Shown here piece after piece: positions 250 to 35,321 of a stretch of 64,000 nt of DNA (within the stretch, counting starts at the first letter, position 1; every line of letters starts with the position of its first letter). The notes under the pieces were generated by a model. It was not told the DNA's origin and ran no database searches. It worked only from the letters and a program-made list of their open reading frames with translations. Source of the stretch: Bacteriovoracaceae bacterium. Its GTDB lineage: Bacteria > Bdellovibrionota > Bacteriovoracia > Bacteriovoracales > Bacteriovoracaceae. Position numbers and translations under genes: made by a program. The stretch is taken from the NCBI GenBank assembly GCA_016784965.1, contig JADHTQ010000005.1, positions 59,652-123,651 of the forward strand, in the 5' to 3' direction.

Positions 250-1014
250 ATGAAAAATAAAGTATCACGTTTAAAGAATAAACTAGATGAAAATTGGGAA
301 GCGATTAAAGATCGCTTCCCGATTGTTATTGATGCAGAACTTGTCGATAAGGATTCTGTTCAACAGGATGTCTTAAAGTACTTTGATGGATTAAAAAGTG
401 CCGACGAGATAAGAGAATATCTGTCCTTAGACAAAAGCGATGCACATCTAATCTTTGTTGACCTGTTAAGATCTGGTGCGGTGCGCTTTTTAGAAGATAT
501 TGAGCGCCCAAAGTATATTAAAAATCGCAACATCGAACTCAAAAACAACTTAGAGTTCTTAAAATCAGAAAAAACGCGCTTGATCGGTGAAGAGTTGTAC
601 CTTAAAGAGCAAATTGTTGATAAGGAAAGGGAATTAGAAGCTTATAAGGCCAAAGTTCCCGAGAATGAAAAGGTCTTAGGTGATCTCAACCAGAAGCTTG
701 AGAAGCTTAAAATTGAGCCTGACAAGCTATGGAAAGAAAATGCGGATCTGTTTGCTTTAAAAAATGAAATGTTTGGAAAAGAAAAAAAGATTCGAACTGT
801 TCTTCGTGAGCTAGAGACTGGATTGCCAAGATTAATTAAAAGAAAAGTACGATTAGATAACTTGATTAAACAGTCAGAAAGTGGTATCGATGTAAAGAAT
901 GTTGAACGAGATAATAGCTTGAGCGAACTCTTTACTTACCGTGATACCATCGATGAGATTAAAAGTGATCTTTTTGCGACTAAAGCACGGCTTAGAGAGT
1001 TAGCTGACGAGTAA
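250..1014 (+). CDS. Coiled-coil protein with N-terminal winged-helix-like segment
   Basis: A 254-residue cytoplasmic-looking protein without signal peptide. Residues about 35-80 (Phe-Asp-Gly-Leu, then Ser-Ala-Asp-Glu-Ile and a helix ending Leu-Arg-Ser-Gly-Ala-Val) resemble the winged-helix tail of DUF4388/PatA-like proteins that decide between few and many copies of a signal; this is a weak match made by eye. Residues about 85-254 are continuous charged coiled coil. It follows the upstream coiled-coil gene by 12 bases and precedes the DUF2231 gene by 17, so the genes look like one operon. Function unknown; a scaffold or structural role is inference. Confidence 0.7.
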   Translation: MKNKVSRLKNKLDENWEAIKDRFPIVIDAELVDKDSVQQDVLKYFDGLKSADEIREYLSLDKSDAHLIFVDLLRSGAVRFLEDIERPKYIKNRNIELKNNLEFLKSEKTRLIGEELYLKEQIVDKERELEAYKAKVPENEKVLGDLNQKLEKLKIEPDKLWKENADLFALKNEMFGKEKKIRTVLRELETGLPRLIKRKVRLDNLIKQSESGIDVKNVERDNSLSELFTYRDTIDEIKSDLFATKARLRELADE

Positions 1015-1031
1015 ATTGGACACAAACTGAT

Positions 1032-1541
1032 ATGTACACGTTTGATCTATCTATTCGCACAGAATTGATTCATCCTTTCTTTGCACACTTTCCCATTGCC
1101 ATGTTACTTCTAGTGCTTGTGTTTAAGCCACTTGTAATGTTTCTAAAACCATCTCCAATGAGAAAACAATTAGAGCTATTTGTTAGTTTTCAGCTCTATA
1201 TAGGCGTACTTTTTTTTATTCCTGTAATTGTTACAGGAAATATGGCTGCCGATATAGTCGGAGGTGAATTATGCGACTATATGGCCATCTATATGCACAA
1301 ACAATGGGCCTATTTTTCTTTTTTCAGCTTTATACTTGTTGCAGCGGTAGATTTAGTGGTTTTGATTGCTCAGGATAGGAGTAGTTGGAAATTTCTTGAA
1401 ACAAAAAGATTTAAGTTTATAATACTAATTATGTTAGCGTATAGCTCATTTACAGTTTTGAAGGTAGGACATTACGGCGGCCTTCTAGTATATGAGCAGG
1501 GGGCGGCCATAGAGGCGTTTACACCAACTTGTCAGTACTAA
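1032..1541 (+). CDS. DUF2231-type integral membrane protein
   Basis: 169 residues with four hydrophobic segments (about 17-40, 52-75, 92-115, 125-145). The start has the hallmark of the DUF2231 family: a His-Pro-x2-x-His-Phe-Pro-Ile-Ala sequence at about residues 14-22, just before the first membrane helix. The family is uncharacterised; some members are thought to bind haem through conserved histidines, and His residues are present near the first and third helices here. It lies between coiled-coil genes and EcsC in one orientation. The Shine-Dalgarno sequence is weak, so expression may depend on coupling to the upstream gene. Confidence 0.75.
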   Translation: MYTFDLSIRTELIHPFFAHFPIAMLLLVLVFKPLVMFLKPSPMRKQLELFVSFQLYIGVLFFIPVIVTGNMAADIVGGELCDYMAIYMHKQWAYFSFFSFILVAAVDLVVLIAQDRSSWKFLETKRFKFIILIMLAYSSFTVLKVGHYGGLLVYEQGAAIEAFTPTCQY

Positions 1542-1554
1542 CTTAAGGTGTATT

Positions 1555-2307
1555 ATGAACGAATACGAAAGACGACAATTAGAAAAAGTGCATGCTTGGA
1601 AAGTGCAAGAACCAAGCGTGTTAAACAAGTACCTCATCCCAGCAAGTCTTCCCTTTGCATGGCTCATAGAAAAAGTTATACCCATAAAAGTGATGAATGC
1701 TATTGTCCAAGGGCTCAATTCAACGGGTAAATGGGCCACTGACAAGTCTGATATTATGAAGATGAGCGATATCGAAGATATTGGGGAGCTTAAAAATTTT
1801 GAAATGGAGTTTTTAGACGAAATGTCTAAAGAGATGAGAAAGTGGTCTATTGGCATGGCCACAGTAGAAGGTGCAGCAACAGGTGCAGGAGGCGCATTAC
1901 TGTTAGCGGTAGATGTTCCTGCCATCATTGTATTGGCCCTTCGTACAATTTATAAGATTGGGCTTTGTTATGGCTTTGAGCCCACTACTGTAGAGGATGA
2001 AGAGTTTGTATTGATGATACTTGCTACATCAGGTGCCAATACCATGTCAGAAAAGATTGCTGCTTTAACACTGATAAAAGGTGTAGAAAAAAAGATCGCA
2101 AAAGACTTGGCCGTGCAGAAGTTGGCCAATCAACTTACAACCAATATGGCCAAAAGAAAATTCCTCCAAATTGTCCCAGTAGTAGGGGCAGTGGTTGGTG
2201 GAGGCATCAATGGCATGTTTATGAAAGACGTTGGGCTTGCGGCCCAACGATCATTTCAAAATAAGTGGCTTGAGCAGAAGGTTTCCAAGAAAAAATCTAA
2301 TTCATAG
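1555..2307 (+). CDS. EcsC family protein
   Basis: 250 residues. The central Gly/Ala-rich stretch (about residues 100-145, Ala-Thr-Gly-Ala-Gly-Gly-Ala then Asp-Val-Pro-Ala-Ile-Ile), followed by a Tyr-Gly-Phe and acidic segment and a second Gly-rich hydrophobic helix near 205-225, is the signature layout of EcsC-type proteins. B. subtilis EcsC sits beside an ABC transporter, but the biochemical role of the family is unknown. The start ATG at 1555 has an AAGGTG ribosome site. The 3' end overlaps the convergent ParA-like gene by 11 bases. Confidence 0.75.
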   Translation: MNEYERRQLEKVHAWKVQEPSVLNKYLIPASLPFAWLIEKVIPIKVMNAIVQGLNSTGKWATDKSDIMKMSDIEDIGELKNFEMEFLDEMSKEMRKWSIGMATVEGAATGAGGALLLAVDVPAIIVLALRTIYKIGLCYGFEPTTVEDEEFVLMILATSGANTMSEKIAALTLIKGVEKKIAKDLAVQKLANQLTTNMAKRKFLQIVPVVGAVVGGGINGMFMKDVGLAAQRSFQNKWLEQKVSKKKSNS

Positions 2308-3112
2308 TTGATTCAACTCTTTCAACTATTTCATTGCTAAAATTTAAAAAATCTTTATAACCCTTGCCAGACTTGCCTTCCATTTCAAAAATAGTTTTTT
2401 GGAATTTGGGAAGTTGTCTGAACGTTGAGTTCGTTGAAATCATAGTTTCAAACATCTCTTGTCCGAACTGATCTTTTAAAAAGGCGGAAACACCAGCAGT
2501 GTCTTTAAACCTAAGGTCTAGTTTGGTTATAAGAGAACCTAAACTTTTTAATTTGGGATTAAGTTTTTTGACCTTGTCAGCAATTTTAAAAGTATCAGCA
2601 AGACCTACCAAAGAGAGCATATCAGTGTTAGTAGGCACTATAAAATAATCGCTTGCATTTAAGGCATTAATGGTCAAAAGGCTAAGCTCAGGTCCTGTAT
2701 CTATCAAGATGAAATCAAAGTTCTTTGCAAATTCGCAGTCTAAGAGTTCTTTTAAAAAATTTTCTCGTCCTATTTCACCCGATATTGCCATGTCTAAAAA
2801 AGAATCTTTACCGCGGTATTCCTTCTCACTGGGAGCGATATATAGGTTAGGGGTAGGTGTTTCATACACTATGTCCTCTAAAGTAACCTCGTCCTCTAAA
2901 AATCCACTAATTATTCCTTTGGATTCTGGAGCCATAGGACCAATTAAAGAAACAGTTAAGCTTGCTTGACTAGGGTCTAGATCAATGAGTAACACTCGTT
3001 TTCCATTAATCGCAAGGCCGGCACCCGTATTAACAACGGTTGCTGTCTTGCCGACACCACCTTTTCTATTAGTAACAGTGATCGTAATTGGATCATCAGA
3101 TTGATCATACAT
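2297..3112 (-). CDS. ParA/Soj-family ATPase (orphan)
   Basis: 271 residues. A deviant Walker A motif (Lys-Gly-Gly-Val-Gly-Lys-Thr, residues about 17-23, with signature Lys17 and Lys22) opens the protein, followed by the Walker A' segment LLIDLDPSQ (about 42-50) and the Walker B-like ILIDTGPELS. These define the ParA/MinD/Soj group, which forms ATP-dependent dimers that move or position DNA or protein cargo. No ParB gene or parS-like cluster is adjacent, so the cargo is unknown. GGAGGAT stands 6-12 bases before the ATG at 3112. The 3' end overlaps EcsC by 11 bases. A chromosome-partition ParA is less likely than a cargo-positioning orphan. Confidence 0.85.
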   Translation of the reverse strand: MYDQSDDPITITVTNRKGGVGKTATVVNTGAGLAINGKRVLLIDLDPSQASLTVSLIGPMAPESKGIISGFLEDEVTLEDIVYETPTPNLYIAPSEKEYRGKDSFLDMAISGEIGRENFLKELLDCEFAKNFDFILIDTGPELSLLTINALNASDYFIVPTNTDMLSLVGLADTFKIADKVKKLNPKLKSLGSLITKLDLRFKDTAGVSAFLKDQFGQEMFETMISTNSTFRQLPKFQKTIFEMEGKSGKGYKDFLNFSNEIVERVESTMN

Positions 3113-5147: not shown

Positions 5148-6158
5148 ATGACTGTAAACTATCAAGAGCTAGGCTTGGTTAATACCAAAAAAATGTTTAA
5201 AGCAGCATTTGACGGAAAATTTGCAATACCTGCTTACAACTTTAACAATATGGAGCAACTCCAGGCCATTGTAACAGCTTGTGCTGAATCTGATTCTCCA
5301 TTTATACTCCAAGTTTCAAGTGGTGCTAGAAAGTATGCCAATCAAACCCTTCTTCGGTATATGGCCCAAGGGGCCGCCCAAATGATGAAAGATATTAATC
5401 CCCATTTGAAGTTTGCACTACACCTCGATCATGGAGATACTCTAGAAATCTGCAAAGCATGCATTGATTCTGGCTTTTCATCAGTCATGATTGATGGCTC
5501 TCACCACTCCTTTGAAAAAAATATTGAACTTACTAAGCAAGTTGTGGAATATGCCCATCAATTTGATGTGACTGTTGAGGGAGAGTTGGGAGTTTTGGCG
5601 GGCATTGAGGATGATGTTGTTGCCGAAGAGTCTACCTATACAAGGCCAGAAGAAGTTTTTGAGTTTGTAGAAAAAACAAAAGTGGATTCTTTGGCCATTT
5701 CAATTGGTACCTCCCATGGGGCAAATAAATTTAAGCCAGATCAGTGTACTAAAAATGCTAAAGGCGTTTTGGTCCCACCACCTCTTCGATTTGACATTTT
5801 GGAAGAAATTGAAAATAAAATTCCAGGCTTTCCCATTGTTTTACATGGCTCTTCATCGGTGGTTCCAAAGTATGTTGATATGATCAATAGTAACGGTGGC
5901 AACTTAAAAGATGCAGTAGGAATTCCCTCAGAGCAGCTAAGACAAGCTACAAAATCTGCGGTTTGTAAAATAAACATTGACTCCGATGGGCGACTGGCGA
6001 TGACTGCAATCATTAGAAAGGTTTTTAACGATAGCCCCGAACAATTTGATCCCAGAAAGTACTTAGGACCGGCCAGAGAAGAGCTCAAACAGATGATTAT
6101 AGAAAAAAACAAGGTTGTACTTGGATCAGCAGGTAGGGGCAAAGAGATTTTTACTTAA
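5148..6158 (+). CDS. fba: Class II fructose-bisphosphate aldolase
   Basis: 336 residues from the ATG at 5148; a GTG four codons earlier is in frame, but GAGG at 5138-5141 lies 6 bases before the ATG and overlaps that GTG. The enzyme cleaves fructose 1,6-bisphosphate to dihydroxyacetone phosphate and glyceraldehyde 3-phosphate. Zinc-site sequences are present: LHLDHG with the metal His, VEGELG with the Glu, the GTSHG region and VLHGSSS with a further His. Length fits class II aldolases of the larger (type B-like) group. It has its own promoter, preceded by the paired 11-base repeats. The stop interlocks with that of the convergent giant gene (shared TTAA). Confidence 0.95.
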   Translation: MTVNYQELGLVNTKKMFKAAFDGKFAIPAYNFNNMEQLQAIVTACAESDSPFILQVSSGARKYANQTLLRYMAQGAAQMMKDINPHLKFALHLDHGDTLEICKACIDSGFSSVMIDGSHHSFEKNIELTKQVVEYAHQFDVTVEGELGVLAGIEDDVVAEESTYTRPEEVFEFVEKTKVDSLAISIGTSHGANKFKPDQCTKNAKGVLVPPPLRFDILEEIENKIPGFPIVLHGSSSVVPKYVDMINSNGGNLKDAVGIPSEQLRQATKSAVCKINIDSDGRLAMTAIIRKVFNDSPEQFDPRKYLGPAREELKQMIIEKNKVVLGSAGRGKEIFT

Positions 6159-15100: not shown

Positions 15101-18100
15101 ATACTCACAAGCGATATCAATACCACTTGCAGGTCCGTGGAGGACAGAAAAAGATTTGCGGTCACTTGCAACCACACCCTCTGCTGAGGTGCCCACCTCT
15201 ACGACGTAACTGTCACCGGGAAGAGTTGCTCTAAAAGAATTGGAGTCACTGGGGAGATTAGAAATACATCCATTGCTAAATGAATAGCTGCTATCGTTTG
15301 GTTTGGTATTGGATGTAACACTTGTGGTATCGTCCCCATTTGCGTCCTCAAATTTAAAATATAGTATTTTATTGCCATCTCCCTCATCATCTTCTAGTAA
15401 ATTGTCATCGGAGTCATACAGACAGATGCTGTTAATGGGAATAGTTGCTCCAGCAATTAGGTTTGGATCACCGTTATTTGGAAAATCATTGGCATCGGCA
15501 TCATTTGGTGGGAATTTTATTTTACTATATACACCATGCTTTAGATTGATGTTAATTATCGCTTCTGCTGTTTCTGTGTTGCCGTCAACTCCCAAAGAAC
15601 TCCAAGAAGCAAGCAGTTGACCTGCTCTGTTGTCAGTAATATCTAGTAGGTTGCCGTCGTTGTCGGGGACATTTGTCAACACGATTTGATTAACACTATT
15701 GAAATTAATGTCAGCACAATTTTTTAGATCATCAGTGAAGCTACTTCGGTGCAAGATGGAGCTTTTATAGATATATTTTTTAATTGAGGCATCAATGTTA
15801 TCTTCAAAAGAGTCACTAGTTTCAAGCCCAGGAGTTCTACGCGCTTCTATGGTCGAAGAAAATGAACCACTACCATTTGTAATACACCTTTCACAGTAAT
15901 TATCATGAGAGTCGTAGGGTAACATACAAAACTTGGCAGTCTGGTCAGCAGTGAATAAAAAGGTGTTGGGGTCTTCTTTGGATGTAGGACAGTTAACGGG
16001 ATTACTACAGCCTGTAGGAGGCAGAGGAACTGTCGTGTCGCTATAATCATAATCGGCCAGAGAGTCGATATCATTTTTAATGCGCAGTGAATTTATGTCA
16101 CCTGCTAGCATTGTTGCATTAAAAAATGAACTATAGGCAATGCGGTTTTCGTTACCGTTAACGGCAGGATCAAGTAGTACTTGCATACTTGCTGCAAACC
16201 ATACATCCTGGTTGGCCCGTGGTAAATTGATGGGAATACGATATATCTCCTTGGTAGAGGATACACGAGTATCAATTACTTTGGTATATGTTTGCTCCAA
16301 AATCCAAGAGTTATTTCCGTCAATGGTATCGTTGGCGTCGACTAGGATATAAGTGTTGGGGTCATTGATATCCGTAGTTGGAAATGGGTAGGTGTTGGGG
16401 TCTCTTAAGTATTTGCCGGCATCATTAAGCAGATTTGTGTTATTTATAATCCAAGGTGTGTCGTTATCTGGAGCTGGAGCGGGCCTAGTCGATCCGTTTC
16501 TGGTTAACATATATATCTTGATAGAGCGGGTTTCGTCCTTGGCAGTAATCCAGTTGTTGTATTTATCGTAGGTTTTTACAACGAGATATTGGTTGGGATC
16601 AGTTGCATCAGTTGTTGCAAGTGCGAGCTCAATGTTAAAGGGCTGTTGTGAGTATATATAAGCGGTGTTAGATGAAGTGATATTTGGGTCATTTAGTGTT
16701 GCACTACTGCCGTCTCTTCTTGTCCATGTTGAAGAGCCGACGTCTGCTGTGAGGGTCAAGCTACCTTGCCCCATTTTTTGGGGAGTAAGCCTAATACTAA
16801 AGGCCCGCTCGCCACTTGGATCAATCAATTCTATAATGTTAGTGTCGTCAAAAGCGTCGGCTCCAGTCCATGAGGCAGAAACTTCTAGGGGATCTAAAAC
16901 AGCAGTCGCGCTATTTGCATCAAATAGGTTTCCATACTGATCTTCAAGGTATGCAGTATACTCGCTGGCGTTATTGGATGTAGGTATGTCTTGTCCTCCT
17001 GGCTTGCAATAACTAAATTCTTTGCCCTCACATAAGTAGCTAGGAGACTGTGAACTCTGTTGCAGCCCTGCACAGCTATCGAGAGTGAAAATATGGGAAG
17101 CCCCATAATTAAGAGTGTCCGCCTTATAAACGCCATTTTGACATATTGGTGTATTGGTACCATCTGAAGTTTTGCGGATGTTGATATGAGTGGGATCTCC
17201 AGAATAGATCGTGATGCCATTTAGGGCACTTTTTGATGGGTCAGGTACCCAAGTTACCGCTGGATCATAGTCTGCCCAATCCTCGGTGACCAAACGTCGA
17301 TTGTTCCAATTTGAAGGGGTTTTTGCCGTCACCTCACATGTCTCACGAGAAGTCCTATCTGCTTTGCTACATTTTGCCGCAGTCCAAGTATAGACCGGCT
17401 TAGTAGTTGTGGTACATGTTCCTGCACTTTTGATACTTGCATCACTACAGCGGCCAAACCTCCACGTTTCGTTACTTGAAGTACAATCAGCTGCAGTATA
17501 GTAACCAGAGCCGCTGCATTTACCTTCGGTCCAGACCTCTCTGGTTCCTTCACAGTCTGCTTGAGTGGTGTATGCCAAATTGTCACAAGCACCAGAGACT
17601 GTAAAGTCACTGTACCCATAAGAGTCATCTACCTCTATATGAAAAACAGGTTTAAAGTTAGTATCTCTAAACACCATTTTAAGTCCAGTAGGAGAGTCAC
17701 CGCTGACGACACCTTTATAAAAATACATATCTACAACTGAGTTGCCATCGGGAGTTTTTATCCAGCGATCATTGTAATCGTCGGTCCAGGTGCTTGGGGT
17801 TTTAGTGGCCGCTCTACAGTCTGTAGCGTTATCGATGTCTGGATCAGAGCAGCTGCCGTTGCGCCACACCTGATTGTTAGATTTACAATCGTCTTTTATG
17901 TTAAATTGAGTATCCGAACATGTGCCCCCAGAATCGATAAAGGCCCTGTTGACTCCTTTTAGCTCTAATTCGATAAACTTGTTGTTAAAAGGAGCGAGTG
18001 TACTTTCATCACTTTCGTTGTAACGGGGATCAGTGTAGCCTCCACTAGCGCTTGGGAAAAATCCATTTGGGAAGAGGTCGTTGTCGTCAGCGTAGTTATC

Positions 18101-19813
18101 TTTTTCAGTATTGAGGTTATATCGATCCAGTGTTAACTTAACAGGTACCGTACCGCTGACATGGGTACAAATATTATCTCCACTGTCGCGAATCGATACT
18201 TCAATTGGAGTGAGTGCACCCGCCCAAGCCACATTTGATAATGCAGAAGCATTTCCATCTTTTGAGACTGAAATTGCTCTGGCGGCCAAGTGGTGAGGAA
18301 TGCCGGGGGTGACCGTAAATTCTGCAGTATGGTCGTAGCTGTTAGCATCCTGGGTGAGTGTAATTCTTCCGGTCCCCTTGGTGCCTGGCTGATAGAATAA
18401 GGTGCCAAACTTTACACCATCGTTGGGATCGGCCAGTGTTGTTGTTGCCTTATCGGCGTACGTACTGCCACTAAAAACCTCAGGTGTAGAAGTGCTCCAG
18501 GTGACAGTTCCATCTGTAAGGTTATATAGAAAGTTACCCATGTTGTCGACTATAGCGGCATGCAATTCATGTGGCTCATTGGGATCTCTGTCTACATTCG
18601 TCGTCGTCTCGTTATATACCTTGGCACCACTGTTGGTCCTGATGGTTATACTAGGGTCATCGGGATCGGGGAGGTACTTCCATATAGGCATTCCTCTTTT
18701 ATCGGCTATTACAACATCGGCGGCTAGGTTCTCTTCTACTAAAATCTCCACACCGGTGGAGTCAAATAGATCTCCTCCATCATCAACCCACATTTTAGTT
18801 ATCCCAGAAGAGGCGATGTAAAAGTCAAAATTATCATTGGGGTCTGCTGCCACAGCTGCTAGTAGCTTTGTTTTTATTTCAGCGGCAACATTTTCAGGGG
18901 TATCGGCAGTATTTAAACCAGCTAGTGCGGTTTGAATTTCGGCAACAGTGGTGCCCGAGCCTAATACACAAATTCCTCTAACAAACAAGCAAGTATATGC
19001 CTGATATTTATCGGGAAGTTTTGAAAGCTGCCCGGTCCAACTTGAGGTTGCATCGTGGTTGAAGTGAATTGTCTTTTGTCTGGGTTCTTCAACTGATCCA
19101 CAACTATTACAAACATTTTGCTCAAAGTTTTCTAAATATACAATTATATTAAATGTTTCACCTGCAGTTTCAAAGTTTCTACCTCTTTGAGTGGACTCTG
19201 GGTTAGGTGAGATATCCGAATCTGGTTTTAAAATCTGATCGCTTGGATCAGTTGACCATCCGTAGAGCTTATGGCTGCCATCGATACCTACAGGTGCACC
19301 GGCAGAGGCAGGGGAGAAACCAGAAGTCTCAACGCCAATTGCAAACTCGTCATAATCTCCTTGACCTTTTTCCGTGACCAGCTCAAAAGTTACTGATTGT
19401 TTGATCATAGGAACTGTCGCAGTTATATTAAACACGATGTCGTCGATGGTCCCGGAGCGGACCTGGGTCAATGCAAATCCATTCTCATCTGTATAGGAGA
19501 CAGGAGTTGTGGGCCTTACTTCCTTGGTATTTGCACTTGTGACCACATTAAAATTTACTTCAATGCCAGACATTGGTTCTCCGTCAGTAGTAACGACTTG
19601 AACAACTAGTGGTCTTGAATAGAGTGTTGTAATTGCAGCAGTTTGATTATTACCACTTGTCATGTATAGACGCATTCCGAAGGTGCCGCTTTCTAGCTCC
19701 TTTTCCATCTCAGGGTCTTTGGATAGACAAGATATAAAAGTAGCAAGCGTTAACAAAACGATGATGGTGTGTACGATCAGTGAATTTCCTCTATAGTATA
19801 AATTTTTCACCAT
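6155..19813 (-). CDS. Giant surface lipoprotein with Ig-like repeats, propeller-like and LamG-like regions
   Basis: 4552 residues, uninterrupted. The N-terminus has a basic start, a hydrophobic core and Phe-Ile-Ser-Cys (Cys29), a slightly atypical lipobox, so outer-membrane anchoring is likely. Residues about 45-150 resemble an invasin-type Big domain. Two blocks (about 620-840 and 1565-1745) hold Cys/Trp mini-repeats. From about 1940 to 3430 run roughly ten copies of a 110-150 residue module that begins with Leu-Pro-Gly-Gln/Glu-Thr and contains Thr-Ala-Gly...Phe...Ala-Val-Asp-x-Tyr-Tyr-Asn. About 3960-4215 looks like a WD/propeller region and 4245-4400 like a LamG (concanavalin-type) domain. 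Tripeptides Asp-Pro-Asn and Asp-Ser-Asn recur throughout. An adhesin or prey/host-contact role is inference. Confidence 0.9.
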   Translation of the reverse strand: MVKNLYYRGNSLIVHTIIVLLTLATFISCLSKDPEMEKELESGTFGMRLYMTSGNNQTAAITTLYSRPLVVQVVTTDGEPMSGIEVNFNVVTSANTKEVRPTTPVSYTDENGFALTQVRSGTIDDIVFNITATVPMIKQSVTFELVTEKGQGDYDEFAIGVETSGFSPASAGAPVGIDGSHKLYGWSTDPSDQILKPDSDISPNPESTQRGRNFETAGETFNIIVYLENFEQNVCNSCGSVEEPRQKTIHFNHDATSSWTGQLSKLPDKYQAYTCLFVRGICVLGSGTTVAEIQTALAGLNTADTPENVAAEIKTKLLAAVAADPNDNFDFYIASSGITKMWVDDGGDLFDSTGVEILVEENLAADVVIADKRGMPIWKYLPDPDDPSITIRTNSGAKVYNETTTNVDRDPNEPHELHAAIVDNMGNFLYNLTDGTVTWSTSTPEVFSGSTYADKATTTLADPNDGVKFGTLFYQPGTKGTGRITLTQDANSYDHTAEFTVTPGIPHHLAARAISVSKDGNASALSNVAWAGALTPIEVSIRDSGDNICTHVSGTVPVKLTLDRYNLNTEKDNYADDNDLFPNGFFPSASGGYTDPRYNESDESTLAPFNNKFIELELKGVNRAFIDSGGTCSDTQFNIKDDCKSNNQVWRNGSCSDPDIDNATDCRAATKTPSTWTDDYNDRWIKTPDGNSVVDMYFYKGVVSGDSPTGLKMVFRDTNFKPVFHIEVDDSYGYSDFTVSGACDNLAYTTQADCEGTREVWTEGKCSGSGYYTAADCTSSNETWRFGRCSDASIKSAGTCTTTTKPVYTWTAAKCSKADRTSRETCEVTAKTPSNWNNRRLVTEDWADYDPAVTWVPDPSKSALNGITIYSGDPTHINIRKTSDGTNTPICQNGVYKADTLNYGASHIFTLDSCAGLQQSSQSPSYLCEGKEFSYCKPGGQDIPTSNNASEYTAYLEDQYGNLFDANSATAVLDPLEVSASWTGADAFDDTNIIELIDPSGERAFSIRLTPQKMGQGSLTLTADVGSSTWTRRDGSSATLNDPNITSSNTAYIYSQQPFNIELALATTDATDPNQYLVVKTYDKYNNWITAKDETRSIKIYMLTRNGSTRPAPAPDNDTPWIINNTNLLNDAGKYLRDPNTYPFPTTDINDPNTYILVDANDTIDGNNSWILEQTYTKVIDTRVSSTKEIYRIPINLPRANQDVWFAASMQVLLDPAVNGNENRIAYSSFFNATMLAGDINSLRIKNDIDSLADYDYSDTTVPLPPTGCSNPVNCPTSKEDPNTFLFTADQTAKFCMLPYDSHDNYCERCITNGSGSFSSTIEARRTPGLETSDSFEDNIDASIKKYIYKSSILHRSSFTDDLKNCADINFNSVNQIVLTNVPDNDGNLLDITDNRAGQLLASWSSLGVDGNTETAEAIININLKHGVYSKIKFPPNDADANDFPNNGDPNLIAGATIPINSICLYDSDDNLLEDDEGDGNKILYFKFEDANGDDTTSVTSNTKPNDSSYSFSNGCISNLPSDSNSFRATLPGDSYVVEVGTSAEGVVASDRKSFSVLHGPASGIDIACEYYRWIPGSCSNSSYLTKGTCEGNSAIWTAAFCQDRDNNTISDKTTQSACESTKNPIKAGVDFSCTIRLTDVWDNTVTTGVDSDSNVIFEIMEDDANGMYRPEPCSRADTENPATCLTLTRTAGTWTPGRCFSGSNDQANCPASDPNDFWTPGSCNVNPTVYRTKAQCTGTTEFWRDIIEYDTNTNNVFSSTGNASDAYEIIGALSNGAATVTFNNKDAPDPGNRSYNFAVRAVASEFNPSVTDTETVEIIPSDPNRLTWDPDNLPRSSYLLNSTWSDLGVLLVDQYGNTLWNTNTSNIALSVNIADSNTVFRGTKTKQLQKGNVEYSDLQYLEEATTDANIILKASLDPNGGILPIGNKLVVDESGATMAIVVLPGQTYNGVAADLNDAVTGTPNDVTVGQEIKINVLYVNAAFGIVSQASLDAIPFAVQVNGDKFEQTSASNYTTEGNAVDVPVTIQTASEDRGFKHTIKIESTICGNPTDCVVSSEFTVNRDPNNHELLIQLPGQITMNQGQADSNLVFDQDGSVQTAAVEFEASVYITDKYHNIVYEDSSAGIDVEVSNDPNAIITVDPNGIQNGEVKVKVTTFKASSIKNVAQQQLRATCTSNCLDNNLLDDGTQYSSNSYEVIGSDVSNLVALFPSQTLNSGRVEADLNVRYQNALSNQTANLVACEPNNTLDVIVTDQYYNRIFTSDYDSNLVSITITDSDNVTLLADDANFVDGKATFNVSPKKATTHSIAIPETLSGVQERTPPDFTVSAAEATKIVLQLPGETFNEGIGADGNAITSSTPLTVTAGVAFDVNVIATDACYNKSPLSDTRIQVATLADAPDPNVYFDGNDLLVAATTSYKAASGHKLTPSVIEGNALDALEESNFYTVIANSTGARPIVILPGQSYNPGQINQSAASAITGTPSSQVAGSSFQATMRVVDQYYNTIVGSYATSISLTDPNGTFDPNDGNSNTTTGIEVYDVVNILADSSTITATVDGNTSGAFTSSNYNVSFADANQTIVILPGQTHVQGKTTIGSAITGTVSSTLTAGTDFNVTIKAVDVYYNTISSFNGSYQFTSSDNNPNLPPIGSFSSGEATVSYRDILQKTGKTITLTETTLSNNTSSSFNINAADANKLLAILPGQSLVSGQTSTSTAIVNDPNEQTTGSSFDVNIVLVDQYYNIVDNDSLNVGVDLTSTDSFASVIDPNNFTLSNGITSIAVTNNTANTHPSYTSTRSMTPEFIGTEGYERVTSSTYNVRPSSKKYLIAALPGETLVPGAPDANDALDGNTLDQETEKEFTINIYGVDDRFNVIEDDTNAVETIASDANDATFDPNVPISFTKGIAAVKVTNTTAGNNKFLVFTSSAYPNSIQSSNYNINTSDVARFIVLIGDQVHNEGVATLEEAITLDPNNIVAGTPFKVVVKAVDSAYNTVATFEQANDLSFTFVGASKSAGGFGPNVVSAGDRAFTSGELTFDANFILYKAGETPTLMAISSETSGTSRTINSVQASTLDHLKIMDKTGGDSNAIEVAAQTVSTSDTNQIQMFAATYDKYGNFLTDDPNANWSFTSVAGDYNTADFEGNDLTLVSSVTLNTRPGTINVSTALSYDSNATDQTGNIVISENGATSYTLTRTSDPNAGENVTFTLTAVDADGNTATDYSGVKQINITSNAGSGQDYCGADSNTLRPEFDSNQNALVYGNDVDNFDVNFTDGNTVFTGAFKKQENGVSVGVQNTTGLLSANLATALNIRVSDPNCLQLRSVSGGEGSPLADSSTLKIGESINAYAAAYDNFGNFVTDENDVVWSNTDGDSNAVSLYTISGAQNFGREIKADGLRDVDTNVVISKTGLQADQINITSAIGDKMRYLILYPGQSLVNSGVGTQLEAVGSVDPNITAGEPFKIRLIAVDYRFYALNNTQCSDCNDTQVVPFTVENGKNSRSGTAAVIPGTELVQFSYDDANNLYSATLDSNIIFYNADPNYPTINAFACVDQMCNEQYESSPAPIPNITAGDLTAIKILEDFENTADPGNYDPELATATYDTNNMVTTDLGDNNPKFMAKGYDTWGNYKSDPNANWSTDSNSVVLRSNRITNANFTTIDWDWNQTTKYGDTIITARLTSDTNITDSTGALTLVSQGASKFLIEIIDSNIVAGNNTRIRLTAQNDSNTNATNFSGTKQMAWDTSEIGTDLCETGESQLSPNFPDTLTFTSGQSGDFNVILTVAGSNKSISALEPFASDSNNVTISPEASTSCLRIRSAASGGGSILSDTNQVIDLDDELSLFAAGYDKYGNFMSINPNWLQTGVAINTLYPFNQATSSNFVGVQTGSGTIALNGDTNSLMGITVNVGGNSRLIMNNTLSCGDSQNCLANNSVSSSFYWDASDPNNDSWRNSSSATWYTEAASSVRGTRDDFPTHAYIVGSLTDANDPNQGGALSIIDAKTNKLFLRATSSSDPNFVLINDRFPINAISATDGKVFVGMKNGLVIFDFTQDRVYRINKSENNFIDNIANRNTNSVSWANAAGVSTFNPNSSDTVLDIDSIDIDPNSYLAIGTSSSIELWNVSATPNTIATDTSTQGVTAVKLSSDRSIYHHRESTNSLYVSNFGLSEVTDYQTQLPARAIFKIEIAPNLPSDGNNTVYLGTDKGFTIIQEGASPNIITLSKGYTGAGVADFNDVINFGNDSNNVSDANLIIPGVSHEIQTEHAITLRFKPADTLNAASVDSNIYLAEKGDMSGSDYSGSGEYQIYFDSSANLNITLRNRNGDNNTCKTESSSWSDAQWYHLEINFVYSDPDTYVRIYVDGVLDGGVCTWSSSDTRYTNAGAESTVIGRNFRGSIDELLITTNRLNTASEFAIPTSEYPTTEVPITSCLYLYHFNETDANTAEDSCTTNGTQNATFGGTTDSPWFSRPTWEDDNFAINSFAINSSDGNNVDGKLYLTDDSSNTSILTFTNLETVTPSLSITDTSTLSGTTVEETFIYQPSDTNSVDFDFGIGSSQGLILIRN
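9520..13990 (-). repeat. Tandem Ig-like modules of the LPGQT type within the giant lipoprotein
   Basis: At least ten modules start with a hydrophobic strand and Leu-Pro-Gly-Gln-Thr/Ser or a near variant (for example at residues near 1943, 2075, 2560 and 3426), then a Gly-Thr-Pro and Thr-Ala-Gly segment, and then a strand ending Val-Asp-x-Tyr-Tyr-Asn. Spacing is about 110-150 residues. The copies are diverged at DNA level, so the array is old and not freshly amplified. The form resembles filamin/Big-type beta-sandwich repeats of bacterial surface proteins. Confidence 0.75.
14580..15115 (-). repeat. Cys/Trp mini-repeat block 2 in the giant lipoprotein
   Basis: Residues about 1565-1745. Several units follow the pattern Thr-x3-Cys-x(5-8)-Trp-Thr-x-Gly-x-Cys-Ser, about 20-25 residues each, some separated by ordinary Ig-like sequence. 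The even cysteine number suggests local disulfides in an extracellular setting. Confidence 0.7.
17320..17950 (-). repeat. Cys/Trp mini-repeat block 1 in the giant lipoprotein
   Basis: Residues about 620-835. Successive units share Cys-Ser, a Thr about four residues before a second Cys, then Trp about seven residues later and a third Cys after Trp-x3. The units are inserted between strands of neighbouring domains, so they look like loops added to an Ig-like backbone. Confidence 0.7.
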
Positions 19814-20010: not shown

Positions 20011-20913
20011 CTACTGTTTACTTGTTTCTTCGACTAATAGTTCAGATAGATATGTTTTTAAGTTGATGGGTTTATTGGTCAGGCCTAGTTTTTTTCGAAT
20101 TTTTTCTTTGTGTACATGAACTGTAGAGGCTGCAATATGCATTAATGAAGCAATCTCTTTTGCTTGGTATCCGGCGCGTACTAGTTGACAGACCTTTATC
20201 TCTGTTGGAGAGAGTTTTAGTTTATAGTTGTTAATTTTATGATAAAAGTCCATGGACAGGCGATTTAAATTGGTTTCAAGTAGTTCTATTAGTTGAGGCC
20301 TGTTATGTGCTTCTTCTTTAATTCTTTGGAGTACCGGTTTGACCGTTTTTTCTATGTTGAGATTGATATTTTCTTTAATACTAATTTTTTCCTCTTCAAT
20401 GTGGGCAAGTACATTTTTTAAAGTAATGTTGGCCTCTTGTAGTTTATGATTTTTTTGCTTGATATTTTCTTCTGCTAGTTTGCGCTCGGAAATATCTTTA
20501 AAATCCTCCACTACACCGATTAGATTGCCTTCGGGGTCACTAAAGGGAGTCGCTGTAACAATACATGGAACTAAACTTCCATCTGCTGTAATTTTATCTA
20601 TCTCTACCTCCAGCTTGGACTTGCCGTTTTTTATTTGAACGATTGGGCATTGTTTGCTGTGGCAGATTTCTCCTTTAAAAACATCATAGCAATTGTGCCC
20701 AATGTTTTGCGAAAGCGTTGTATTTGTAAGTTGTAAAAAAGTTTTGTTAACTCGCAAAGTAGTAAAGTTTAAATCAATTACTCGCATCCCGTCCGCTGCA
20801 GTATTAAATATTTGCATCAGCTCTTGTTCGAGTAGCTTGTTTTGATTTACCTTCACTGTCAGTTGTTCAATAAGTTCAATCAACTCCAGCTTTTTCATTT
20901 TGCTATATGACAT
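20011..20913 (-). CDS. PAS domain - LuxR-type HTH transcriptional regulator
   Basis: 300 residues. Residues about 22-145 form a PAS domain: an opening Phe-Asn-Thr-Ala-Ala-Asp-Gly-Met-Arg-Val-Ile-Asp segment, a CPI segment with cysteines, and closing strands ending Asp-Ile-Ser-Glu-Arg. About 150-215 is coiled coil. Residues about 230-295 are a LuxR/GerE helix-turn-helix (Leu-Ser-Pro-Thr-Glu-Ile-Lys-Val-Cys-x-Leu-Val-Arg-x-Gly, then Lys-Glu-Ile-Ala and the recognition helix Ser-Thr-Val-His-Val-His). There is no receiver domain. Its start overlaps the end of the CZB gene by 19 bases, so translation is coupled. It likely converts a redox, ligand or zinc signal into transcription; the signal is inferred from the partner. 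Confidence 0.9.
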   Translation of the reverse strand: MSYSKMKKLELIELIEQLTVKVNQNKLLEQELMQIFNTAADGMRVIDLNFTTLRVNKTFLQLTNTTLSQNIGHNCYDVFKGEICHSKQCPIVQIKNGKSKLEVEIDKITADGSLVPCIVTATPFSDPEGNLIGVVEDFKDISERKLAEENIKQKNHKLQEANITLKNVLAHIEEEKISIKENINLNIEKTVKPVLQRIKEEAHNRPQLIELLETNLNRLSMDFYHKINNYKLKLSPTEIKVCQLVRAGYQAKEIASLMHIAASTVHVHKEKIRKKLGLTNKPINLKTYLSELLVEETSKQ

Positions 20914-21791
20914 GAAGGCCCCCCATGGTGGTCTAGGTGCATTTTTTTCATGGATGCTATAAACAGATTACTGGAGTCCAGGAGGTTTTGTGTACTAAAG
21001 ATTGTATCGGAGTTTAATAACTTAAACTCAATCAAAGATAATAAATATATGGTCTCACGACTAAACCATAACATGTCTAAATAGGCGTGATCTGCTCTGG
21101 CGTCTCTTTTGTGAATTAGATTATGAATAGTTGATTCTGCTTTTTTATGAAAAGATTGATGGACACTATCGAGCATTTCAATTTCATCTATGTTGGGGTG
21201 GATTTTTAGTCCGACGTCTTTAATCCAGGCCCCAAGGGCACAGTTATTAGCAGACTGCAGGCATACATTTTTTCCTCTACTGCCAAATGTTTTGGTAAGA
21301 TCACGTGCCCACCGAAGATGAACCAGGCGTGCGTGACTTACATCGAGTACTTTAAAATCCTCTGGCATGGCACTAAATGGCCCTTCAAATAAACGCAGCA
21401 GAAGATTGCGGGCCTTTGTGGGTTTTTTGCCTTTATTTTGTCTTTCCAAAGAGCGCAATTCGATATCTGTTAGTAGCGAGATAATTTCTCTGCTCATGTT
21501 GCGAACTTCTTGGAGGTGCAGTTTTGCTTTATCTTGGTCCTGTTGCTTTAAGGAGGCGACAACCTCCTTGGCACTCATGTGGAAGTGTTTGTGTATGTCA
21601 ACTAAATGACGAGTTGAGTCGTGCTCTTTGTAGGTATCTAGTGCTGTAGTGTGCAGCCAAACTCCCAATTCACAGTCATTATAGGACTGCAACTTAATAT
21701 CCTTTTTACCACCGTGGACAATGGCCTCAAGCTCCATTTCCCAATTGAGATGAACATTTCTGGCCATACAGATATCTAAATTTGCTCCCAT
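20895..21791 (-). CDS. Tandem CZB (chemoreceptor zinc-binding) domain protein
   Basis: 298 residues with two CZB domains. Copy 1 has His14, Cys40 (in Asn-Asp-Cys-Glu-Leu-Gly-Val-Trp), His67 and His71; copy 2 has His158, Cys184 (Asn-Asn-Cys-Ala-Leu-Gly-Ala-Trp), His211 and His215. Each is the full 3-His/1-Cys zinc set of the family. In known members the zinc-thiolate Cys responds to zinc level or to hypochlorite. There is no transmembrane, methyl-accepting or GGDEF part, so this is a stand-alone cytoplasmic sensor. AAGGAG precedes the ATG at 21791. It overlaps the PAS-LuxR gene by 19 bases. Confidence 0.9.
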   Translation of the reverse strand: MGANLDICMARNVHLNWEMELEAIVHGGKKDIKLQSYNDCELGVWLHTTALDTYKEHDSTRHLVDIHKHFHMSAKEVVASLKQQDQDKAKLHLQEVRNMSREIISLLTDIELRSLERQNKGKKPTKARNLLLRLFEGPFSAMPEDFKVLDVSHARLVHLRWARDLTKTFGSRGKNVCLQSANNCALGAWIKDVGLKIHPNIDEIEMLDSVHQSFHKKAESTIHNLIHKRDARADHAYLDMLWFSRETIYLLSLIEFKLLNSDTIFSTQNLLDSSNLFIASMKKMHLDHHGGPSCHIAK

Positions 21792-33096: not shown

Positions 33097-34269
33097 TTAC
33101 CATCGTCTTAACCAGCGCCTTTGATTTTTGCCATGTCTTTTGTTTGCATTAGAAGAAGCAGCGAGCTTTAAAGCTTGACTCATATATTGCTTATAAGCAG
33201 TGTAAACTGAGATTGACGGTTGATCTTTGTCTCCAACATAATACATTTGCACATTCATATCACTTAGCTTTGTATAAATTTCATCTCCGATGCGTTTTGC
33301 AATTACTACACCGATATTGTGTTTTTTGACTAGTGCAACAAGGTTAGCACTTACATCCCCTCGATAGGTGCGTGCATTATTGGGAAGTGGATTGAACGTA
33401 TTTGATTGGATATCAAAGATTATATGGAAGTGTGCCCGACCAAGTAAATCATCCATAATGGCATCAGAGGAGGGGGCCATGGCAGGTATGAGTATGTTAT
33501 TTTTTGTATGTAATATGGCATTTGTTGAGTGGGCAATGAAGGCCACTATGTAGACTGAAATTAGTAGCGTAGAAAATATGACTTTCTTTTTTAAGTCTAA
33601 TATTAAGTAAGTGTTCGCACTAAACTCATGGTTAAAAATCTCCAGTGCTCCTTTTAGCATCAAGATACCGATTATAGATGCTGAGATGGGATCACTTGCA
33701 GTAAACCCTAAATCGGCTAAAATTAATCCACCTAGGGAAATGATTGAGGCCCAAAGGTTAGTTTTATTTTGAACCACACAGATAAAGATGTTGACGTCAC
33801 TATGTTGCTTGGAAGCACATTGTGAAGCATGCCATAGATACCAGTTCAGCAATATTGCACAAAATGCCACAGGAACTCCCAACAACCCAGGACGAAAGAG
33901 GTTTCCTTGAACTAAGATAGATATATTATCTGCTAAAACCCATACACCTGTGACAAAGGTAAAAATTGCGATAATACCACTAATAGCAAGGGCCTTTTTT
34001 GTTGATATTTTATCATTTTCACCAAGACCTAAAAAATTGATTATTAAAGATAATGAGTCAATTAGAGAGTGAATTGAGTCGGCAATTAAGACCTGACTGC
34101 TTGCCAAATATCCGATAACACCTTTAACCAAAGCCAGCAAAATATTTGCAACCAAAGAGAGTGATATTACTCGTGATCGGCAAGAGCTAGCAGACTGCTT
34201 GCGCATGGCCCCAACAAGACAATATTTTTGCTGCAAAAAAATGCTACATGTATTGTCGTTTTGTTGCAT
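33097..34269 (-). CDS. CDF-type cation transporter fused to NifX/NifB-like domain, metal site incomplete
   Basis: 390 residues. Residues about 30-225 have the six-helix CDF fold; helix 2 keeps the metal pair in Ile-His-Ser-Leu-Ile-Asp (His67, Asp71). In helix 5 the usual His-x3-Asp is replaced around Gln-Asn-Lys-Thr-Asn (Asn168, Asn171), so the transport site lacks half its ligands. Residues about 255-350 resemble the dinitrogenase iron-molybdenum cofactor (NifX/NifB C-terminal) domain: Asp-Asp-Leu-Leu-Gly-Arg-Ala-x-Phe-His-Ile-Ile-Phe-Asp, then Asn-Asn-Ala-Arg and Gly-Val-Val-Ile-Ala. The tail is basic. It follows the NuoB-like gene by 12 bases. It may sense or scaffold metal instead of pumping it. 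Confidence 0.75.
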   Translation of the reverse strand: MQQNDNTCSIFLQQKYCLVGAMRKQSASSCRSRVISLSLVANILLALVKGVIGYLASSQVLIADSIHSLIDSLSLIINFLGLGENDKISTKKALAISGIIAIFTFVTGVWVLADNISILVQGNLFRPGLLGVPVAFCAILLNWYLWHASQCASKQHSDVNIFICVVQNKTNLWASIISLGGLILADLGFTASDPISASIIGILMLKGALEIFNHEFSANTYLILDLKKKVIFSTLLISVYIVAFIAHSTNAILHTKNNILIPAMAPSSDAIMDDLLGRAHFHIIFDIQSNTFNPLPNNARTYRGDVSANLVALVKKHNIGVVIAKRIGDEIYTKLSDMNVQMYYVGDKDQPSISVYTAYKQYMSQALKLAASSNANKRHGKNQRRWLRRW

Positions 34270-34281
34270 AACCGTTATCTG

Positions 34282-34932
34282 CTACAAATAACATTTGTTA
34301 AGTTCAGGGATATTTAAATCTTTAATAACTTTTTTCTGGTTGTTCTTATACCAGTTAAAGTTATCATAATATTTACTTTCACTTTCGTTTTGAGCGTTTT
34401 GGATCAACAATTTTAATTGTAAAAATCCGGCAATCAACTTGCGCTGAGTAGGCCAACAATCAGCAATATGTACATCAACAGGGATATACTGATCAATTCG
34501 GCATTTTAAATTTCTTTTGCCTTTTGGCCTTTGGCCACTACTTGAATTGCTACCAAGAGCTATGACAAACTTTGGTCTTTTGATCTGTTCATAACTTTTA
34601 ATAATTCTTTTTAAAGTTTTTACAGAAGAGTATCCTCCAATTACAAAGATCGAAGGTCTATTAAGTGGTGCCTTAGAAACATTGCTTTGTTTGTAATAAT
34701 CAAAGTGAGCAGAAAGAATCATTCTTAACTCTATGGCCCCACAAGCGGTTCCAAAGCCGAGAACTTCCAAGGAATGAGAACTTGCCCAAGTAGCAAAGCG
34801 CTCAATTATCCTTATATGAGTACTAAGAGGGTAAGGTCTTAGATCACACAAGTGGGGCCAGCGAGGTAATGTATGTTTATTTTGTAAATTTTCATTTTGA
34901 TTACTTCTTCTCATATCATACCTCCAACGCAA
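34282..34932 (-). CDS. NuoB-like protein lacking part of the N2 cluster ligands
   Basis: 216 residues. Gly-Phe-Gly-Thr-Ala-Cys-Gly-Ala-Ile-Glu-Leu (61-69), Ile-Phe-Val-Ile-Gly-Gly, Phe-Val-Ile-Ala-Leu-Gly-Ser, Tyr-Ile-Pro-Val-Asp-Val and Asp-Cys-Trp-Pro-Thr follow the order of NuoB, the complex I subunit holding cluster N2. Of its four Cys ligands only two remain: Cys64 is followed by Gly65 instead of a second Cys, the Gly-Ser-Cys is Gly-Ser-Asn (Asn129), and Cys159 is kept. No other nuo genes are nearby. It overlaps the hemerythrin-like gene by 22 bases. It is probably not a respiratory subunit; a [NiFe]-hydrogenase small-subunit relative is an alternative. Confidence 0.75.
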   Translation of the reverse strand: MRWRYDMRRSNQNENLQNKHTLPRWPHLCDLRPYPLSTHIRIIERFATWASSHSLEVLGFGTACGAIELRMILSAHFDYYKQSNVSKAPLNRPSIFVIGGYSSVKTLKRIIKSYEQIKRPKFVIALGSNSSSGQRPKGKRNLKCRIDQYIPVDVHIADCWPTQRKLIAGFLQLKLLIQNAQNESESKYYDNFNWYKNNQKKVIKDLNIPELNKCYL

Positions 34933-35321
34933 GTACTGTTACAAAAACAACAATTAAGTAGCTTAACCTCAATGTGTTCAATTACTCGCAACTTCCACCA
35001 CTCAATGCCACTTGTAGAGAGCTGACAAAGGTCTTGTTTACACTGATTAATAAATTCGAAAACATTGCTCATAAATTTATTTTTGTTATCAATAAATTTG
35101 TCAAAATCTGGGCAGGCGCACTTTCTTACCAACTCCTCTTCAAACTCAAAATGAGTTTCCACTTCCATAGCAAAATCATCCAATAGAGCAATAAGCCTTA
35201 TTTTAGAAATAGGAGTCTTAATAGCATCATCAATTTTACATAAGCTGTGCAGTAAACTTTGATGTATTGTGTTTAATTGTTCGCTAAAAATATTCCAGCT
35301 ATTATCCCATTCATAAGACAT
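34911..35321 (-). CDS. Degenerate hemerythrin-like protein with Cys-rich tail
   Basis: 136 residues. The order follows bacteriohemerythrin: His20, the His-Phe-x2-Glu-Glu segment (His57, Glu61) and a C-terminal Trp...His-Ile (His116). The His-x3-His pair of helix 3 is missing (Phe76, Lys80 in Asp-Phe-Asp-Lys-Phe-Ile-Asp-Asn-Lys), and the last bridging Asp is Leu121. So ligands for one of the two irons are lost. The end, Cys-Cys-Phe-Cys-Asn-Ser-Thr-Cys, adds a cluster absent from ordinary hemerythrins and could bind another metal. It is first in a three-gene operon. Alignment was by eye. Confidence 0.7.
   Translation of the reverse strand: MSYEWDNSWNIFSEQLNTIHQSLLHSLCKIDDAIKTPISKIRLIALLDDFAMEVETHFEFEEELVRKCACPDFDKFIDNKNKFMSNVFEFINQCKQDLCQLSTSGIEWWKLRVIEHIEVKLLNCCFCNSTCVGGMI

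What the first reader, a model, noticed from the sequence alone, without database searches (positions are those of the whole stretch)
33097..35321. Three-gene operon of metal-protein homologues, each missing key metal ligands
Reading on the minus strand: a hemerythrin-like protein keeps His20, His57, Glu61 and His116 but lacks the helix-3 His pair and the bridging Asp, with a Cys-Cys-x-Cys-x3-Cys tail added. A NuoB-like protein keeps two of four N2 cluster cysteines. A CDF transporter keeps His67/Asp71 but has Asn in helix 5 in place of the His/Asp pair and carries a NifX-like domain. Genes overlap or lie 12 bases apart, so they are one operon. Loss at all three suggests a shared new role, such as an iron/oxygen sensing complex, rather than decay, since all frames are intact.
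Basis: partly seen in the sequence, partly recalled or inferred. Interest (0 to 1): 0.8.

Follow-up and report, generated by a model that had tools for sequence, protein, structure and literature searches.

The report
Disarmed magnetosome iron-transporter homologue
A bacterium that carries the genes for magnet-making organelles also has a third relative of the organelle's iron transporters, whose metal-carrying site is altered in the same way in all three copies found and which is fused to a cofactor-type domain, so it likely serves the organelle as a helper rather than a transporter; the two odd metal-protein genes beside it were not found with it in any other genome searched.

Summary
The CDF-NifX protein falls with magnetosome CDFs (MamB/MamM) and apart from 25 other CDFs (support 97/94). 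Its helix-2 His/Asp is kept and the helix-5 His/Asp is Gln/Asn in 3 of 3 homologues (33-41% identical to the window's); 45 of 45 other CDFs compared keep the helix-5 Asp. The usual cytosolic domain is replaced by a predicted seventh membrane helix and a NifX-like domain. In 368 genomes of the phylum it was found in 2, both among the 7 with an MGC. That argues for a conserved new role of this one gene, likely a non-transporting partner of MamB/MamM. The hemerythrin-like protein keeps one half of the di-iron site, as does a paralogue in the same genome. The NuoB-like protein's loss is private: 60 of 60 relatives compared keep the lost cysteine. The other readable CDF-NifX locus lacks both partners. 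An iron/oxygen-sensing complex has no support beyond the operon.

The parts
33097..34269 (-). CDF-NifX protein, 390 aa: magnetosome-type CDF membrane domain + predicted seventh helix + NifX-like domain
34057..34071 (-). helix-2 half of the transport site, H67...D71, kept
   Evidence: HD in 3 of 3 CDF-NifX
33757..33771 (-). helix-5 half of the transport site, Gln167...Asn171 in place of His/Asp (Glu/Asp in MamB type)
   Evidence: QN in 3 of 3 CDF-NifX; Asp at position 171 in 45 of 45 other CDFs compared
34180..34182 (-). Cys30, second Cys of the N-terminal CxxC seen in magnetosome CDFs; first Cys lost here, kept in the two homologues
   Evidence: MamB cysteines and the C9Y mutant in PMC4287615 (passages)
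33511..33609 (-). predicted seventh membrane helix, residues 221-253, with K227-K229 at its start
33181..33498 (-). NifX-like (orange-protein fold) domain, residues 258-363
   Evidence: PF02579, AF2 model, Foldseek 2wfb/1rdu/2yx6
34282..34914 (-). NuoB-like protein (210 aa), closest solved relative 6u8y chain J, with altered cluster-site loops
34911..35321 (-). hemerythrin-like protein (136 aa) keeping H20, H57, E61, H116
250..3112 (.). end of a gene block with homologues (250-1014, 1032-1541, 2297-3112) on the MGC contig of G102; about 30 kb from the trio on the same contig
   Evidence: 54%, 51% and 77% identity to L046/L047; three more homologous genes lie just before the window

Best explanation
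The third gene encodes a MamB/MamM-type CDF protein whose helix-5 metal ligands are replaced by Gln and Asn and whose usual cytosolic domain is replaced by a NifX-like domain, and it likely works in the magnetosome membrane as a non-transporting partner of MamB/MamM. The predicted seventh helix would put the NifX domain in the magnetosome lumen or periplasm, the side where the MGC's magnetochrome-PDZ-NifX protein (FmpB type) would also work; there it would bind or pass on iron or a cofactor. The hemerythrin-like and NuoB-like proteins would be cytosolic partners added in this lineage: a half-site hemerythrin (His-His-Glu, likely at most one iron) and a likely cluster-less NuoB fold used as a binding scaffold. 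Shown: sequence state, conservation of the CDF site, clade, co-occurrence with the MGC in two genomes, profile and fold matches. Inferred: membrane location, topology, partnership, absence of transport, everything said of the two partners' roles.
For: The genome has NCBIfam matches to MamA, MamQ, MamB, MamM, MamN and MamE/O-like proteases and a magnetochrome protein on contig C81. CDF-NifX + 10 MGC CDFs split from 25 other CDFs, 97/94. N-terminal CxxC in 10 of 10 Bdellovibrionota MGC CDFs and 10 of 10 Mam-type CDFs of Desulfobacterales, 0 of 25 others, 2 of 3 CDF-NifX, the window keeping one Cys. Gln/Asn in 3 of 3. Of 368 genomes CDF-NifX is in 2 and an MGC in 7; both falling in the 7 has probability 3e-4, kinship ignored. 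NifX domains also in the MGC protein next to the MamB-type gene in G000 and G102 and in RS-1 FmpB, whose mutants have rare particles (PMC4287615 passages). Seven hydrophobic helices, model pLDDT 80. Precedent: ZNT6 is an auxiliary subunit of ZNT5 (PMC5666860 passages); MamB/MamM suggested as landmark proteins (PMC7170241 passages).
Against: The gene lies outside the mamAB-type cluster in both readable genomes. 5 of the 7 MGC genomes show no CDF-NifX. The window copy lost one Cys of the CxxC. Its NifX domain does not group with the MGC NifX domains, and in G000/G102 those score lower against the CDF-NifX profile (10-20 bits a domain) than ordinary NifX proteins of Desulfobacterales (35-56). MamB score 69 bits, cut-off 350. 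The seventh helix of the window protein is weak by hydropathy (1.35, threshold 1.3). The P0122 genome could not be checked for an MGC. Topology and location are predictions.
Confidence: 0.5

Rival explanations
1. CDF-NifX is still a transporter with changed metal preference: His/Asp plus Gln/Asn would carry another ion or Fe(II), possibly loading the NifX domain.
For: Gln and Asn can bind metals (general knowledge); an Asn in the site gives ZNT10 manganese transport (PMC5666860 passages). The site is a fixed Gln/Asn in 3 of 3, not random, and the helix-2 ligands are kept.
Against: The helix-5 Asp is kept in 45 of 45 other CDFs compared, also in the 3 MamM-like ones that changed other positions; the ZNT10 change is in helix 2.
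Confidence: 0.25
2. The three proteins form one iron/oxygen-sensing complex.
For: Tight gene set with 4-base overlap and 12-base gap; all three altered at metal sites; a half-site hemerythrin could read iron or oxygen.
Against: Trio found in 1 of 368 genomes; the other readable CDF-NifX locus has neither partner; no output or DNA-binding domain among the profile matches of the three.
Confidence: 0.12
3. NuoB-like and Hr-like are acquired or duplicated genes in early decay, carried along with a functional CDF-NifX gene.
For: NuoB-like has changed 37 of 89 columns that at least 95% of 60 relatives share, many of them in the cluster-site loops, and stands alone in the phylum.
Against: Frames intact and codon use normal; 52 of the 89 columns kept; the Hr-like state is shared with a paralogue at 31% identity.
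Confidence: 0.3

Closest known systems
MamB / MamM magnetosome CDF proteins
   Same: CDF membrane domain; N-terminal CxxC (whole in 2 of 3, one Cys in the window); same side of the tree
   Different: Gln/Asn in helix 5; cytosolic domain replaced by a predicted seventh helix and NifX; gene outside the mamAB-type cluster
MamV, a further magnetosome CDF (NCBIfam NF040994)
   Same: a CDF beyond MamB and MamM in magnetotactic bacteria (recalled); profile match 31.6 bits
   Different: weaker match than to MamB (69 bits); the 319-position model has no NifX part as far as matched; MamV sequences were not compared
FmpB (DMR_41100) of strain RS-1, magnetochrome + PDZ + NifX protein
   Same: NifX-type domain in a protein of a magnetosome bacterium (passages)
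   Different: no CDF domain; its NifX domain is not shown to be the source
CDF + ZT_dimer + NifX of Desulfocicer vacuolatum (L068); CdfB of Acidithiobacillus ferrooxidans
   Same: CDF fused to a NifX/MTH1175 domain
   Different: L068 keeps the cytosolic dimer domain and has His/Asp and Glu/Asp at the site; CdfB seen only in a passage
ZNT6, auxiliary subunit of ZNT5
   Same: a CDF relative working as auxiliary subunit in a heterodimer (PMC5666860 passages)
   Different: animal secretory-pathway zinc protein; analogy only
NuoB/MbsJ-type proteins, where named mostly from Spirochaetes and Cloacimonadota
   Same: 42-52% identity over 78-97% of the query among the 119 others listed of 178 matches
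   Different: relatives keep the Cys at 123 in 60 of 60 compared; the window has Asn and altered loops
Hemerythrin-like proteins of the MSR-1 magnetosome island
   Same: hemerythrin-type genes in a magnetotactic bacterium; deletion of two gave no phenotype (PMC3197154 passages)
   Different: their ligand state and neighbours were not compared here

Membership tests
MamB/MamM magnetosome CDF | falls with magnetosome CDFs, apart from other CDFs | tested here: met
   97/94 split, 13 against 25 rows; midpoint root, long CDF-NifX stem (2.8)
MamB/MamM magnetosome CDF | N-terminal CxxC | tested here: inconclusive
   2 of 3 CDF-NifX; the window keeps only the second Cys
MamB/MamM magnetosome CDF | cytosolic C-terminal dimer domain | tested here: not met
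   no ZT_dimer match; extra helix + NifX instead. The second MGC CDF of G000 also shows no ZT_dimer match at E 0.1
MamB/MamM magnetosome CDF | NCBIfam equivalog cut-off, 350 bits | tested here: not met
   69 bits to MamB; the MGC's own CDFs also fall below it, at 211 and 206
MamB/MamM magnetosome CDF | gene inside the magnetosome gene cluster | tested here: not met
   on another contig than the Mam-type CDFs in G000 and G102
metal-transporting CDF | helix-2 and helix-5 ligand pairs | tested here: not met
   HD/QN in 3 of 3
NifX / orange-protein fold | profile and fold match | tested here: met
   PF02579 31.4 bits, cut-off 26.3; 2wfb TM 0.80 by target length
NifX / orange-protein fold | binds a metal cluster or cofactor | not testable with these tools
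   no Cys in the window's domain; needs protein
bacteriohemerythrin | seven di-iron ligands | tested here: not met
   4 of 7 kept (ligand roles recalled); an acidic residue lies near the lost Asp
bacteriohemerythrin | NCBIfam cut-off, 84 bits | tested here: not met
   43.9 bits, E 2.3e-11: a relative, below the cut-off; no PDB match at E 0.1, while the paralogue matches DcrH
NuoB/MbsJ cluster subunit | core cluster cysteines | tested here: not met
   C58 and C153 kept, position 123 is Asn; 60 of 60 relatives compared have Cys

The most novel reading that the evidence does not exclude
Some magnetotactic bacteria turned a further magnetosome CDF into a pseudo-transporter: it docks on MamB/MamM, no longer carries metal, and holds a cofactor-type NifX domain in the organelle lumen where iron is received. 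In this genome its operon adds a half-site hemerythrin and a cluster-less NuoB as cytosolic iron/redox readers of that gate.
Probability: 0.27. Interest if true: 0.8.

Novelty: new variant of a known kind. Interest (0 to 1): 0.57.

Why it matters
A further magnetosome-type CDF, changed at the transport site in a fixed way and carrying a NifX domain on the predicted lumen side, would be a new kind of magnetosome component and would link iron entry with the NifX domain, which a 2015 paper knew from one magnetosome protein only, FmpB (PMC4287615 passages). It also gives a marker gene outside the cluster and a test case for a CDF that serves as partner rather than carrier.

Tried and rejected
Decay of all three genes: rejected for the CDF gene (fixed Gln/Asn in three homologues) and made less likely for Hr-like by its paralogue; left open for NuoB-like. 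dN/dS was not computed: the homologues are too far apart and no near strain was at hand. Origin of the NifX domain from FmpB: tree poorly resolved and scores point the other way, not claimed. Full-length CDF-NifX in Desulfobacterales: 242 genomes drawn evenly from a larger order gave Mam-type CDFs but no full-length match; two further hits in longer frames (L188, L189) are other CDFs. Only the best few candidates of each genome are scored in such searches, so misses are possible. The first genome-contig scan with two rows found nothing; the second with three rows found the G102 record and 49 distant loci. The NuoB-like AF2 model was poor (pLDDT 61) and was not used. Other magnetotactic phyla (Nitrospirota, Omnitrophota and others) were not searched as such. 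The search for homologous proteins scored only 7998 candidates for the CDF and did not list the G102 protein, so its two hits are a lower bound. Promoter and terminator scan: no more than in shuffles.
Full report
What is there. Three minus-strand genes at 33097-35321 form a tight set: Hr-like (136 aa), NuoB-like (210 aa from its ATG, overlapping the Hr stop by 4 bases) and CDF-NifX (390 aa, 12 bases further). Profiles: bacteriohemerythrin NF033749 E 2.3e-11 but 43.9 bits against a cut-off of 84; NuoB NF005012 E 5.7e-29, 100.8 bits against 116, while Pfam's Oxidored_q6 passes (35.3 against 27); Cation_efflux E 1.6e-13 and Nitro_FeMo-Co E 2.4e-7, both over Pfam's cut-offs; the best NCBIfam match of the CDF protein is the magnetosome protein MamB, 69 bits, far below its equivalog cut-off of 350. 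Codon use is like that of 14 neighbouring genes.

The genome. Contig C81 carries a magnetosome gene cluster: NCBIfam matches to MamA, MamQ, MamB, MamM and MamN (E 8e-19 to 6e-91, all below the equivalog cut-offs), two MamE/MamO-like proteases (best match there the general DegP/HtrA model), and a protein with magnetochrome (PF18509), PDZ and two NifX domains next to the MamB-type gene. G102 (same family) has the same cluster; matched frames of C81 are 36-75% identical. Its contig C4 has the length of, and yields the same CDF protein as, record JABGUH010000003.1, a Bdellovibrionales MAG, SI034_bin15. A 2026 paper reports MGCs in Bdellovibrionota, among them two Bacteriovoracia genera from Saanich Inlet and the Black Sea; I saw the abstract, one section (18) and passages (PMC13200544). 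So the magnetosome cluster as such is known; the words hemerythrin, NifX, NuoB, MamB, cation diffusion and dinitrogenase do not occur in that main text (supplements not read). In the left end of the window three genes (250-1014, 1032-1541, 2297-3112) and, in the 3.5 kb before it, three more have homologues on the MGC contig of G102 (54, 51, 77% and 48, 43, 30%). I call this block mad-like from memory of the mad gene types; no profile names it. Actin-like and long coiled-coil frames 8-18 kb before the window (L108) were recognised by eye only; one of them had no NCBIfam match. The trio is about 30 kb from this block.

The CDF-NifX family. One further full-length relative came from the protein database (P0122, 40%) and one from the search of 368 genomes of the phylum (G102, E 1.3e-92; next best genome 2.1e-20). 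In the three, H67 and D71 of helix 2 are kept and the helix-5 positions are Gln167 and Asn171. I compared 45 other CDFs: 10 from the Bdellovibrionota MGC contigs, 10 Desulfobacterales loci (the ten given as loci, called Mam-type by score only) and 25 others (19 of the 49 distant loci and 6 loci). The Asp at 171 is present in 45 of 45. Of the 25 others 22 have His/Asp with His/Asp, 3 have Glu or Asp for the helix-5 His; 17 of the 20 magnetosome-type ones have His/Asp with Glu/Asp, 3 have Ala/Asp with Asn or Cys in helix 2. A tree of 38 rows puts the three with the 10 Bdellovibrionota MGC CDFs, apart from the 25 others, at 97/94; root by midpoint, CDF-NifX stem long (2.8). The N-terminal CxxC, whose two Cys a 2015 paper calls conserved in magnetosome MamB and whose C9Y mutant is non-magnetic (PMC4287615 passages), is in 20 of 20 magnetosome-type CDFs, 0 of 25 others and 2 of 3 CDF-NifX; the window has only the second Cys.

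Distribution. I counted a genome as MGC-bearing if a magnetochrome hit (E <= 1e-3) and a Mam-type CDF lie on one contig: G000, G102, G019, G025, G179, G332, G333, 7 of 368. Only 4 of 368 (G000, G102, G019, G333) pass Pfam's own magnetochrome cut-off. Five further genomes with weak magnetochrome hits (G104, G029, G162, G201, G266) were not counted. CDF-NifX is in 2 of the 7 and was not found in the other 361. Drawing two at random from 368, both would fall in the 7 with probability 3e-4, kinship ignored. In 242 genomes drawn from the order of Desulfocicer there was no full-length CDF-NifX. Fusion of a CDF with NifX as such is not new: Desulfocicer vacuolatum has CDF + ZT_dimer + NifX (1 of 10 long CDF frames tested), and CdfB of Acidithiobacillus ferrooxidans was described with a C-terminal MTH1175 signature (PMC2631029 passages); CdfB was not checked here for the dimer domain.

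Architecture. Hydropathy gives seven membrane helices in the window protein, the seventh weak (1.35, threshold 1.3); in both homologues a hydrophobic helix likewise follows the last CDF helix with basic residues before it, though other helices fell below the threshold and P0122 gets one call inside its NifX domain. AlphaFold2 on 18 rows, only three or four of which cover NifX, gave pLDDT 80, pTM 0.61, a helix at 221-253 and an alpha/beta domain at 258-363. Foldseek matches the domain to the orange protein 2wfb, 1rdu (TM1290) and 2yx6 (PH0822), and the membrane part to YiiP and ZnT proteins. With the CDF N-terminus in the cytosol (established for CDFs, recalled), a seventh helix would put NifX on the lumen/periplasm side; this is a prediction.

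The partners. Hr-like keeps H20, H57, E61 and H116. By the known ligand scheme of hemerythrin (recalled), H20, H57 and E61 make up one iron's share; the other iron has lost two of its three His, and the bridging Asp is not at its usual place, although an acidic residue three positions earlier (E118) could stand near. So at most one full iron site is likely. A second intact copy of this kind lies on contig C40 (31% identity; same four kept, same helix-3 His lost, Asp likewise shifted); its tail lacks the Cys cluster. The phylum-wide search with both found no third member (20 of 368 genomes with any match at 1e-5; next best 49 bits). NuoB-like is 42-52% identical to the 119 other proteins listed of 178 matches, where named mostly from Spirochaetes and Cloacimonadota; its best solved relative is 6u8y chain J, which I recall as the MBS complex of Pyrococcus. 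Of 89 columns conserved in at least 95% of 60 relatives (60 of the 119 were aligned), it has changed 37, C123 among them, and kept 52. With one of these relatives (P0003) as query, 288 of 368 genomes match at 1e-30, the window's gene at 203.7 bits and the next at 135.1. Its own genome has one other NuoB-family match.

Mechanism. I commit to this: CDF-NifX is a magnetosome-family CDF that likely no longer transports and serves as a partner of MamB/MamM, carrying a NifX domain on the lumen side. Precedents: ZNT6 as auxiliary subunit of ZNT5 (PMC5666860 passages), MamB/MamM as suggested landmark proteins (PMC7170241 passages), FmpB for NifX in magnetosome formation (PMC4287615 passages). Against a shared origin with FmpB's domain: the MGC NifX domains group together (88/97) without the CDF-NifX ones, and those of G000/G102 score 10-20 bits a domain against its profile while eight ordinary NifX proteins score 35-56. 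The two operon partners are lineage additions of unknown effect. Hemerythrins in magnetosome islands have been suspected before; deletion of two in MSR-1 gave no phenotype (PMC3197154 passages; also PMC9549626 passages).

In print, as far as searched: magnetosome + NifX, 2 papers (one opened in passages, PMC4287615, the other seen in the listing); MamE + magnetosome + dinitrogenase iron-molybdenum, 0; magnetosome + cation diffusion facilitator + dinitrogenase, 1 (passages); magnetosome + MamV + cation diffusion facilitator, 3 (listing only); at least three of magnetosome, hemerythrin, cation diffusion facilitator, NuoB, 3 (listing only). What I saw of these describes no magnetosome-type CDF fused to NifX; subscription papers and supplements were outside the search.

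Noticed in passing
L041, L043, L044 (G179, G102, G000): The second (MamM-like) CDF of these MGCs has Asn or Cys in helix 2 and Ala in place of the helix-5 His, so this CDF too lacks a full ligand set.
   Followed up: partly
G000:C40:2614-2997 (L132:1471-1857): Second half-site hemerythrin-like gene, between a chloride-channel-like gene and an acetyltransferase-like gene, both named by eye.
   Followed up: yes
G332:C220:353-736 and G333:C15:53549-53932: Hemerythrin genes about 5.5-6.5 kb from the Mam-type CDF genes of two other MGC genomes; the one read (L128) has the usual ligands.
   Followed up: partly
L006:19536-19991 (G000:C81) and G102:C2:21526-21897: A NuoB-family gene on the MGC contig in both genomes; the G000 one keeps the usual cysteine motifs by eye.
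   Followed up: no
L198 (G409:C17): Desulfobacterales genome with Mam-type CDFs: open frame of at least 1117 residues with three NifX domains beside a CDF gene.
   Followed up: no
window 6155-19813, minus strand: Single open frame of 4552 aa with repeated segments rich in DPN motifs; looks like a large secreted or surface protein, by eye.
   Followed up: no
window 20011-21791, minus strand: Protein with two repeats that look like the zinc-binding CZB domain (by eye, recalled), followed by a PAS + LuxR-type regulator: possible metal or redox sensing pair.
   Followed up: no
L046:14144-15844 (G102 MGC): Protein with three PDZ domains and one NifX domain, next to the magnetochrome-PDZ-NifX protein.
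   Followed up: partly
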